This document shows positions 3,062-9,510 of a stretch of DNA of 12,500 nt, piece by piece. Under the pieces are notes generated by a model. The model made no database searches. It saw only the letters and a list, made by a program, of their open reading frames with translations, and had not been told where the DNA came from. Source of the DNA: Acropora yongei (Eukaryota; Cnidaria; Anthozoa; Scleractinia; Acroporidae); NCBI GenBank assembly GCA_014634225.1, contig BLFN01000617.1, positions 966,240 to 978,739 of the forward strand, read 5' to 3'. A program made the position numbers and the translations under genes. Position 1 is the stretch's first letter; each line of letters opens with the position of its first letter.

Positions 3062-3237
3062 CTAACGCAGCTTGGTGCTCATCAACTCCTCCATCCAACG
3101 CTTGTGAAACCTGTTGTAATTTTGAATCAACTCTTCCTTCTGTTTCTCAACTGGCTTCAAATTCAAATTTTTGTCCGGTTTTATGGCAGTCAATTCCGTT
3201 GTCATCTCGTTGTCCTGTTCTTTCAACTGAGCATTGG
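3062..3237 (-). CDS. K+ channel receptor gene, exon 9: charged C-terminal tail and stop
   Basis: Two bases plus 57 codons and a TAG stop, after acceptor tatttcgtttcag. The G left from exon 8 plus CC gives Ala. The tail is rich in Lys and Glu (LKEQDNEMTTELTAIK, then KQKEELIQNYNRFHKRWM) and could form a short helix or coiled coil. No PDZ-type C-terminus is obvious (ends STKLR). Confidence 0.8.
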
Positions 3238-9200: not shown

Positions 9201-9510
9201 TTCCACGTGCAACAAAACCAAGGCGGTTGCCGATTTTGGGCCCCATGACACTTGAATAGGGCTCATTCAGGCTCCAAGATACCGAAAGAGGCTTTCCATC
9301 TTTACAACGTTCATCTAACGAACGAGAAGTGAGGTTTTTAAATGACGATATTGATTTATCATAAAAATTAGGAATATAAGTTTTCCCTAAACTGATGAAG
9401 ATGTCATCTTCTGACAGATTTGCGTATTTATCCCACGATAGGAAAAGCGCATGCGTGGTTAAAGTTGTTGTGCACAGGATCGTGTAGATGATTACAGTGG
9501 TGTACCACAT
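3062..9510 (-). CDS. Ionotropic-glutamate-receptor-like channel with a K+ selectivity filter, nine exons
   Basis: Spliced CDS of about 546 residues on the minus strand. Exons (high to low): 9510-9192, 8471-8245, 7430-7326, 6811-6696, 6418-6265, 5551-5488, 5050-about 4765, about 3995-3802, 3237-3062. Phases agree at every junction except exon 7/8, which has alternatives. Order along the protein: signal peptide (1 to about 22), S1 lobe (about 60-182), M1 (about 195-217), pore loop ending TTVGYGD (253-259), M2 (about 268-292), S2 lobe (about 300-420), M3 (about 455-472), charged tail to 546. The M1-P-M2 pore between two halves of a bilobed binding domain, followed by M3, is the iGluR layout; the filter is that of K+ channels. 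Only about 40 residues separate the signal peptide from S1, so the usual amino-terminal domain (about 400 residues) is absent. Expected role (inference): plasma-membrane K+ channel opened by an extracellular small ligand, so hyperpolarising. Ligand unknown. Confidence 0.9.
3624..3690. repeat. Two tandem copies of a 37-base C-rich unit in intron 8
   Basis: Copy one is 3624-3660 and copy two 3661-3690 (incomplete). Both begin tttgcaagcccc and contain gaggttaagat. The C-rich content stands out from the AT-rich surroundings; the C run at 3605-3610 may be the edge of a third, decayed copy. Confidence 0.7.
3802..3997 (-). CDS. K+ channel receptor gene, exon 8: helix M3 and start of cytoplasmic tail
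   Basis: About 65 codons, from a T-rich acceptor ending ccgcag (start 3997) or ccgcagag (start 3995) to donor AATG|GTGAAA. It codes for SNTEKDYAVKEVEGLF, the hydrophobic run VITIGGGVVGSLMFIGLVW (M3), then EFSYWRKKHAGKD. Basic residues after the helix fit the cytoplasmic side. If not spliced at 3802 the frame would read on about 21 codons into the intron. Confidence 0.85.
3998..4764 (-). other. Intron 7 of the channel gene, with a possible 21-base microexon
   Basis: Besides ordinary intron sequence it has a perfect 12-base palindrome (tgtctcgagaca, 4106-4117), a hairpin at 4115-4131, and on the minus strand a segment 4568-4548 bordered by actttgctctag and GTAAAG that would code KQLKRIE in phase 0. 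Use of that microexon would require the weak phase-0 donor of exon 7. Confidence 0.3.
4765..5050 (-). CDS. K+ channel receptor gene, exon 7: S2 lobe
   Basis: Starts at acceptor cttccaaag and codes for FGSPAQITSAVKNKEVEG, then VLIDNYALTRF, ITYGLVLPTGSPRT and a helix ending HIAKHLKPVK. The NKEVEGVLIDNYAL segment matches the iGluR S2 region whose acidic residue binds the ligand alpha-amino group (Asp about 351 here). The 3' end is uncertain: donors GTAAGA (end 4765, phase 2), GTAAGG (end 4772, phase 1) or a weak GTTGAG (end 4788, phase 0). The first pairs with exon 8 starting at 3995. Confidence 0.85.
5051..5487 (-). other. Intron 6 of the channel gene, nothing else seen
   Basis: AT-rich intron between the two S2 exons; no repeat or coding frame stands out. 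Confidence 0.5.
5488..5551 (-). CDS. K+ channel receptor gene, exon 6: start of S2 lobe
   Basis: 21 codons plus one base, from acceptor tttttatttgcag to donor CAAG|GTATTA. The peptide IGAVNGSEEFRLGVSLNFD resembles the S2 opening of iGluRs (I-G-x-x-x-G-S-x-E). The exon is too short to stand out by open frame alone; it was found by matching phase between exons 5 and 7. Confidence 0.82.
5718..5880. mobile_element. 163-bp MITE in intron 5 of the channel gene
   Basis: Long imperfect terminal inverted repeats of about 57 bases: the left arm starts tcacatgatttttcttgtgc and continues caatttggaataagtaagcac; the right arm ends caaattgcactcgaaatcat then gtga. The centre has short direct repeats (gttagtctttgttagttttg) and an extra internal copy of ccaaattgcactcg at about 5779. 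No coding capacity. No clear target-site duplication. Confidence 0.75.
6265..6418 (-). CDS. K+ channel receptor gene, exon 5: YGD of the filter and helix M2
   Basis: One base plus 51 codons, from acceptor ttaaaag to donor GCAAAG|GTATGT. It starts YGDRSPKSIPGR, completing TTVGYGD as in K+ channels, followed by the hydrophobic helix FCFLWIITGINLIAIFTALV (M2) and the linker TTQPHFNVHGAK into S2. Confidence 0.92.
6696..6811 (-). CDS. K+ channel receptor gene, exon 4: pore helix and first half of the filter
   Basis: 38 codons plus two bases, from acceptor tttttcttag to donor GTGG|GTGAGT. It holds FFSKEFSGEFYNGVWDG followed by FWWAFVTMTTV. The last part is nearly the pore helix of Shaker-type voltage-gated K+ channels (FWWAVVTMTTVGYGD). 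The two leftover G bases join the first G of exon 5 to code for the first filter glycine, so the intron cuts the filter. Confidence 0.92.
6812..7325 (-). other. Intron 3 of the channel gene, nothing else seen
   Basis: Two overlapping minus-strand open frames (6847-7212, 7088-7297) lie within it in different phases. Neither has splice sites that would keep the M1 to pore reading frame, and both peptides look like translated noncoding DNA. Confidence 0.5.
7326..7430 (-). CDS. K+ channel receptor gene, exon 3: transmembrane helix M1
   Basis: Exactly 35 codons in phase 0, from acceptor ttttaacag to donor TTG|GTATGT. The exon codes for a short linker (QTRTQSLVNTIFHAW) and a hydrophobic run PFLIFILVAAASSGL, read as the first membrane helix. 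Helix M1 therefore sits on its own exon. Confidence 0.85.
7431..8244 (-). other. Intron 2 of the channel gene, nothing else seen
   Basis: No repeat, RNA gene or supported coding frame found. Open frames on the plus strand here (7382-7576 and 8002-8286) partly overlay real minus-strand exons and lack support. Confidence 0.5.
8245..8471 (-). CDS. K+ channel receptor gene, exon 2: main part of S1 lobe
   Basis: Two bases plus 75 codons, from acceptor cttaatag to donor CCCAAG|GTAAAA. It holds VVQRIVRYCCNGGQIEFG, then MYDFTFPVYESK, then DQPFVKVVSAPRVVLLVYDG. The last piece lines up with the end of S1, which in iGluRs reads roughly DFSKPFMSLGISIMI. The residue expected to be the ligand-binding arginine of the PLTxxxR-like stretch is not visible here. 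The next segment in exon 3 is M1. Confidence 0.87.
8861..9130. mobile_element. 270-bp MITE with 80-base inverted ends in intron 1, Mutator-like
   Basis: Left arm 8861-8940 starts caacctcgttcccagggtct; right arm 9050-9130 ends gaccctgggaacgaggttg. The arms are near-identical over about 80 bases. Flanks ctttttcgc (8852-8860) and ctttctcgc (9131-9139) match at eight of nine bases, which fits a 9-bp target-site duplication. Long inverted ends plus a 9-bp duplication point to a Mutator-like origin (family rule; inference here). Both arms carry CACGTG, an E-box core. No transposase; the ORFs seen inside are translated repeat. Confidence 0.85.
9192..9510 (-). CDS. K+ channel receptor gene, exon 1: signal peptide and start of S1
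   Basis: 106 codons plus one base. It opens with MWYTTVIIYTILCTTTLTTH, a hydrophobic stretch typical of a signal peptide, which supports this ATG as the start. Then come two N-glycosylation motifs (NLSE, NLTS) and LSVSWSLNEPYSSV, which resembles the opening strand of an iGluR S1 lobe, then a G-F-V-A-R-G-I-F-P segment. The donor is CCAA|GTAGGT; the base left over plus CT of exon 2 gives Thr. A good acceptor (ttttctttcag) ends 16 bases before the ATG, so a 5' untranslated exon probably lies upstream. Confidence 0.87.

What the first reader, a model, noticed from the sequence alone, without database searches (positions are those of the whole stretch)
3062..9510. An animal glutamate-receptor-like channel with a Kv-type potassium filter
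Seen: nine exons joined in phase encode S1-M1-P-M2-S2-M3 with the pore sequence FWWAFVTMTTVGYGD. Known: GluR0 of cyanobacteria and AvGluR1 of a bdelloid rotifer are the textbook K+-selective members; most animal iGluRs are cation-nonselective and lack TVGYG. Inference: this gene makes a ligand-gated K+ channel with an inhibitory rather than excitatory output, in a minimal form with no amino-terminal domain. The pore resembles Shaker channels more closely than typical iGluRs.
Basis: partly seen in the sequence, partly recalled or inferred. Interest (0 to 1): 0.78.

Follow-up and report, generated by a model that had tools for sequence, protein, structure and literature searches.

The report
Orphan-ligand potassium channel in a coral
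A coral gene encodes a membrane channel built like a glutamate receptor but with the filter of a potassium channel and without the usual glutamate-gripping residue; relatives in jellyfish, anemones, acorn worms and annelids suggest that animals carry an overlooked family of possibly calming, ligand-gated potassium channels.

Summary
Nine GT-AG exons (9510 down to 3062, minus strand) join in phase into a 533-residue protein: likely signal peptide, S1, M1, P loop with TMTTVGYGD, M2, S2, a last membrane helix, tail; no amino-terminal domain. A 536-residue Acropora millepora protein is 90% identical along its whole length.

'Glutamate receptor' goes too far: the amino-acid-binding arginine, kept in 42 of 45 bacterial GluR0-type proteins, has no counterpart column, although the S2 aspartate is invariant (52 of 52). 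Best reading: a K+ channel opened by an unknown ligand, probably inhibitory. Selectivity, ligand gating and inhibition are inferred. The kind is known (GluR0, rotifer AvGluR1); breadth, receptor-like paralogs and altered pocket were in no paper that my searches listed.

The parts
9192..9510 (-). exon 1 of the CDS: start codon, likely signal peptide, N-terminal extension and first part of S1
   Evidence: GT donor; N-terminus shared with P0001; an AG acceptor lies just upstream of the ATG, so a 5' UTR exon is likely (inference)
8245..8471 (-). exon 2: rest of S1 (FPVYESKMDKDLYRDQPF, where iGluRs carry the alpha-carboxylate-binding arginine)
   Evidence: columns 146-165
7326..7430 (-). exon 3: M1 helix
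   Evidence: helices 186-196 and 198-221 in the model of the ortholog
6696..6790 (-). exon 4: turret, pore helix and filter up to TTV-G (codon split GG|G)
   Evidence: filter columns
6419..6695 (-). phase-2 intron that splits the first glycine codon of GYG
   Evidence: donor at the same position in L018, L020, L021 and L019
6265..6418 (-). exon 5: YGD, M2 helix (gate region IFTALVTAT)
5488..5551 (-). exon 6: start of S2 with NGSEEF at the start of a helix
   Evidence: helix 309-316 in the model of the ortholog
4785..5050 (-). exon 7: main part of S2 with the invariant aspartate (LIDNY)
3802..3997 (-). exon 8: S2 to membrane linker and C-terminal membrane helix
   Evidence: (helix 432-468)
3062..3237 (-). 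exon 9: tail, probably cytoplasmic, and stop codon
8861..9130 (.). inverted repeat in intron 1 (48-nt arms 98% complementary, overlapped by 27-nt arms 93% complementary), MITE-like

Best explanation
The gene encodes one subunit of a (by analogy tetrameric) potassium channel with ionotropic-glutamate-receptor topology. The two lobes S1 and S2 form an extracellular clamshell of the GluR0 / periplasmic-binding-protein fold; M1, the P loop with TTVGYGD and M2 form an inverted K+-channel pore; a C-terminal membrane helix is added as in eukaryotic iGluRs and unlike bacterial GluR0. Shown by computation: gene structure, filter, predicted fold, homology, family membership. Inferred: a small extracellular ligand closes the clamshell, pulls M2 open and lets K+ out, which hyperpolarises or clamps the cell. 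Because the arginine that grips the alpha-carboxylate of amino acids has no counterpart column while the acidic residue that grips the amino group is invariant, I think an amine or another non-classical ligand likelier than glutamate. [quoted passage not shown]
Against: No function was measured. S1 alone is not significant by profile (E 0.002, while one mismatched pair gave 8.2e-5). Foldseek TM-scores are modest (0.25-0.54), and in the VIA lists ordinary amino-acid-binding proteins tie with GluR0. A review states that AvGluR1 passes Na+ despite TXVGYG (PMC3483616). The pocket may be a relic and the channel gated otherwise or constitutively. The loss of the arginine rests on sequence alignment and predicted secondary structure, not on a residue-level superposition; column 161 holds R or K in 42 of 52 and could be a substitute. 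No transcript of this coral was seen.
Confidence: 0.62

Rival explanations
1. A true amino-acid-gated K+ channel: glutamate or another amino acid opens it, with a repositioned basic residue (column 161) doing the work of the missing arginine.
Against: No column matches the arginine found in 42 of 45 bacterial relatives; 35 of 52 have no Arg at all in positions 150-160; 0 of 52 match Pfam's amino-acid-binding families SBP_bac_3 or Lig_chan-Glu_bd at E 0.01, while 45 and 43 of 45 bacterial ones do; in hemichordate P0050 column 161 is asparagine (alignment).
Confidence: 0.2
2. A K+ channel whose clamshell no longer binds a ligand; it works as a leak or is gated by partner proteins, as the Ig/CUB paralogs suggest.
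For: Pocket divergence; paralogs with Ig, CUB, EGF or FN3 ectodomains.
Against: The S2 aspartate (52 of 52) and the GSEE helix start (S308 45 of 52, E310 48 of 52) are strongly conserved, which suggests a working pocket.
Confidence: 0.13
3. An ordinary voltage-gated (Kv/Shaker) channel, or an artefact of wrongly joined exons from a Kv gene and an iGluR gene.
For: The pore scores best with Kv channels in PDB.
Against: No voltage-sensor helices in the model and no T1 domain in Pfam; P0001 and proteins from short contigs of other sources (517 residues on a contig of at most 1,933 bases) carry the same order of parts in one protein; the S2 homology is to GluR0.
Confidence: 0.02

Closest known systems
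GluR0 of cyanobacteria (Synechocystis and Nostoc; binding cores PDB 1ii5, 2pyy)
   Same: S1-M1-P-M2-S2 order, TVGYG filter, same binding-domain fold
   Different: the animal protein has an extra C-terminal membrane helix and tail, lacks a counterpart of the conserved S1 arginine, and its binding domain is invisible to Pfam
AvGluR1 of the rotifer Adineta vaga (known here from passages in PMC12226733, PMC11479355, PMC12332018, PMC3483616)
   Same: animal iGluR architecture with the extra membrane helix and a TXVGYG filter
Metazoan iGluRs (AKDF, NMDA, epsilon; sponge lambda)
   Same: overall fold and topology; an ordinary iGluR with TYTANLAAF lies in the same genome (L001)
   Different: K+ filter, no ATD, SYTANLAAF gate motif not kept (under 4 of 9 in 50 of 52), separate branch in the tree
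Kv channels (Shaker, Kv2.1)
   Same: P loop FWWA.VTMTTVGYGD
   Different: S1 and S2 of a binding clamshell around the pore, no voltage sensor

Membership tests
iGluR superfamily (GluR0-type architecture) | S1-M1-P-M2-S2 order with a P loop between two membrane helices | tested here: met
iGluR superfamily (GluR0-type architecture) | periplasmic-binding-protein clamshell made of S1 and S2 | tested here: met
GluR0 / AvGluR1 type (K+ filter) | TXVGYG filter | tested here: met
GluR0 / AvGluR1 type (K+ filter) | K+-selective current opened by an amino acid | not testable with these tools
   needs expression and recording
Amino-acid-gated glutamate receptors | S1 arginine that binds the alpha-carboxylate (role recalled) | tested here: not met
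   R in 42 of 45 bacterial members; no matching column in 52 animal members; alignment-based
Amino-acid-gated glutamate receptors | acidic S2 residue that binds the amino group (role recalled) | tested here: met
   D345 in 52 of 52; D in 38 of 45 bacterial members
Metazoan iGluR classes (AKDF, NMDA, epsilon, lambda) | SYTANLAAF gate motif, at least 4 of 9 (criterion of PMC6307864) | tested here: not met
   3 of 9 in P0001; under 4 in 50 of 52 at fixed register; 27 of 52 reach 4 or 5 if the register may slide by up to 4
Metazoan iGluR classes (AKDF, NMDA, epsilon, lambda) | grouping with iGluRs in a tree | tested here: inconclusive
   family 100/97 apart from bacterial GluR0-type rows plus two iGluRs, but a family+iGluR clade is not rejected, p-AU 0.444
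AvGluR1 orthology | same clade as AvGluR1 | not tested
   its sequence was in no tool result
Kv channels | S1-S4 voltage sensor before the pore | tested here: not met
   besides the N-terminal signal helix only M1, pore helix, M2 and one later long membrane helix in the model

The most novel reading that the evidence does not exclude
Eumetazoans inherited a separate lineage of iGluR-shaped K+ channels, kept in cnidarians, hemichordates, annelids and perhaps flatworms, that senses non-amino-acid ligands and inhibits cells. It diversified by adding Ig, CUB, EGF or FN3 ectodomains, and surveys missed it because they filter on SYTANLAAF or on binding-domain models.
Probability: 0.45. Interest if true: 0.82.

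Novelty: new variant of a known kind. Interest (0 to 1): 0.62.

Why it matters
Fast inhibition is usually taken to run through chloride channels, and K+-based inhibition through G-protein-coupled channels (recalled). A family of directly ligand-gated K+ channels of iGluR shape in nerve-net animals and in some bilaterians would be an additional route. It would also offer living intermediates for the old question of how K+ channels and glutamate receptors are related, testable by recording from a 533-residue protein. In the passages read here the rotifer AvGluR1 is the only eukaryotic example named.

Tried and rejected
Exon between 3 and 4: an open frame at 7088-7215 (FSVARLPDRIPERIG..) was considered and rejected by eye, because its end phase does not fit exon 4; ten of ten homologs are gapless across the exon 3/4 join. 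The exon 8 donor at TTT|GTAGTT was rejected by eye because it puts exon 9 out of frame.

The sister group stays open: the tree separates the animal K+ family from bacteria plus two iGluRs (100/97), but AU tests reject neither family+iGluR as one clade (p 0.444) nor bacteria as one clade (p 0.491). Only two iGluR rows were used, one of them partial. Rows P0215 and P0210 were dropped because the filter pattern was not found in them. Not all family proteins in hand were put in: 44 cnidarian-type rows (window included) and 7 bilaterian rows were kept. Rows labelled cnidarian include unnamed ones (for instance P0002, P0010, P0018, P0022, P0031, P0037, P0045, P0070, P0125, P0154, P0159, P0166, P0204), and P0121, labelled bilaterian, is unnamed; labels follow similarity. 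P0077 has a very long branch.

Literature: 10 searches, lists capped at 10 to 20 rows. No listed title or abstract start and no passage read describes this family. That covers only this open-access library and those terms; supplements were not searched, and the original AvGluR1 paper was not seen. The idea that the filter intron is homologous to one in two-pore K+ channel genes (recalled) found no support and was dropped. Pfam on three other minus-strand frames of the window found nothing. In some searches no K+ channel, no vertebrate iGluR and no AvGluR1 binding core appears among the 50 rows shown; that excludes nothing, since isolated binding domains fill the list.

Full report
What was claimed and what is there. 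All of this is in the sequence. A script joined the exons 9510-9192, 8471-8245, 7430-7326, 6790-6696, 6418-6265, 5551-5488, 5050-4785, 3997-3802 and 3237-3062; every intron is GT-AG, all phases fit, and the product is 533 residues ending at a stop. The window lies in a 405-Mb genome of 365 contigs. The closest protein, 90% identical over 100% of the query, is 'uncharacterized protein LOC114967902 isoform X2' of Acropora millepora, so the organism is probably an Acropora or a near relative (inference). That ortholog, searched against the same genome, gives nine matches on C229 that fall on the nine exons.

Splicing. RNA from this coral was not available. Indirect support: ten full-length or nearly full-length homologs are gapless across joins 1, 3, 4, 5 and 6 in 10 of 10, across join 2 in 7, join 7 in 9 and join 8 in 3 of 10; some of the ten are themselves gene predictions. 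Others come from short contigs, for example P0002 with 517 residues (1,551 coding bases) from contigs of at most 1,933 bases, whereas the window gene spans 6.4 kb. These are probably transcript contigs (inference; the contigs were not seen).

Pore. GYGD is invariant in 52 of 52, and TVGYG is complete in 51 of 52. In PDB 59 of the 60 rows shown (of 262 matches) for the window protein are named as K+ channels; the other is Lmo2059 protein. Among the listed proteins outside the animal family, the nearest are bacterial GluR0-type ones. The filter makes K+ selectivity likely. It is no proof: PMC3483616 (passages) says that AvGluR1 is permeable to Na+ in spite of TXVGYG, while PMC12226733 and PMC11479355 (passages) call it K+-selective. 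I did not see the original AvGluR1 paper.

Pocket. In iGluRs and GluR0 an arginine of S1 holds the alpha-carboxylate and an acidic residue of S2 holds the amino group (recalled). In the bacterial alignment the arginine column is R in 42 of 45 and the S2 column D in 38 of 45. In the animal alignment the S2 aspartate is D in 52 of 52, but between the two S1 strands there is only a short loop (no helix in either model), no column of conserved arginine, and 35 of 52 have no arginine in positions 150-160. The nearest candidate, column 161, is R in 20 and K in 22 of 52. This argues against a classical amino-acid receptor but leaves an altered pocket; it depends on the alignment.

Family and history. 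Named members: corals, anemones, octocorals, Rhopilema, Hydra and Hydractinia; the hemichordates Saccoglossus, Glandiceps and Ptychodera; the annelids Dimorphilus, Owenia and Capitella; and, from one odd gene model, the flatworm Macrostomum (lineages of six species checked). In a tree of 72 rows the 51 animal K+ rows form one side of a branch (100/97), with 19 bacterial rows and two iGluRs on the other. The iGluRs attach among bacterial rows, but an AU test does not reject animal K+ rows plus iGluRs as one clade (p 0.444). So a family of its own is supported; its sister is open. Some paralogs carry Ig and CUB, EGF or FN3 domains before S1 (P0052, P0125, P0062). The window's genome holds further family matches on C82, C352 and C283; the copy in L018 (C82) reads almost like the A. 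cervicornis protein named 'Cubilin' over S1 and the pore (by eye), so it is probably of the Ig/CUB type, though its upstream exons were not searched.

A shared intron. The intron inside the filter, phase 2 in the first glycine codon of GYG, has its donor at the same place in the window gene and in four paralogous places (L018, L020, L021; L019). Fitting acceptors were seen in L018 and L020; none was found for L021 in the stretch scanned. The intron is therefore old within the family. In L019 the acceptor seen leaves the frame shifted and the filter reads TTLG, so that copy may be a pseudogene.

Why it may have been missed. The 2018 survey of animal iGluRs discarded sequences with fewer than four residues of SYTANLAAF (PMC6307864, passages). 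At the aligned position the family has under four in 50 of 52 (3 in 36, 2 in 10, 1 in 4; 4 in 2); allowing a slide of up to four positions, 27 of 52 reach four or five. The 2025 eukaryotic phylogeny (PMC12226733) was read only in passages; they mention the rotifer receptor and GluR0 but no such cnidarian family. No row listed in the ten literature searches describes it.

Function. Most likely an extracellular ligand closes the S1-S2 clamshell, opens M2 and lets K+ leave, which would inhibit the cell. Precedents: GluR0, whose K+ transport and outside-facing ends were tested in E. coli (PMC13099474, abstract and passages), and a working chimera of a viral K+ pore with the GluA1 binding domain (PMC6385376, passages). 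Ligand, selectivity, cell type and sign of the effect are not shown here.

Verdict. Observation confirmed; interpretation right in architecture and pore, unproven in ligand and physiology, and too narrow in scope. A new variant of a known kind, with a broad and, in what I could search, undescribed animal family behind it.

Noticed in passing
window 8861-9130: A MITE-like inverted repeat sits in intron 1 (arms of 48 and 27 nt, 98% and 93% complementary).
   Followed up: partly
window 11649-11709: An (AT)n microsatellite of about 30 copies.
   Followed up: no
window 850-1116, minus strand: An 88-residue open frame holding MSSMPRFVTKIIGGKLVTVPEYRD.. that runs into GTAAG looks like the first coding exon of a neighbouring gene; no Pfam match.
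   Followed up: partly
L001 (C243): An ordinary coral iGluR with TYTANLAAF and S2 FIFDGPIL in the same genome; it matches vertebrate AMPA receptors.
   Followed up: partly
L018 and L019 (C82): Paralogs within about 25 kb on C82; the one in L018 resembles the Ig/CUB type, the one in L019 reads TTLG and its filter join looks out of frame, perhaps a pseudogene.
   Followed up: partly
P0067 (Porites evermanni, protein): A gene model with two channel units in one protein, each breaking off right after TTVG, the place of the filter intron; probably missed exons (sequence).
   Followed up: no
P0125 and P0062 (proteins): Family members with EGF-like or fibronectin-III domains in place of an amino-terminal domain.
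   Followed up: no
P0135 (Dimorphilus gyrociliatus, protein): Two channel units in one gene model, the first with a GFG filter (sequence).
   Followed up: no
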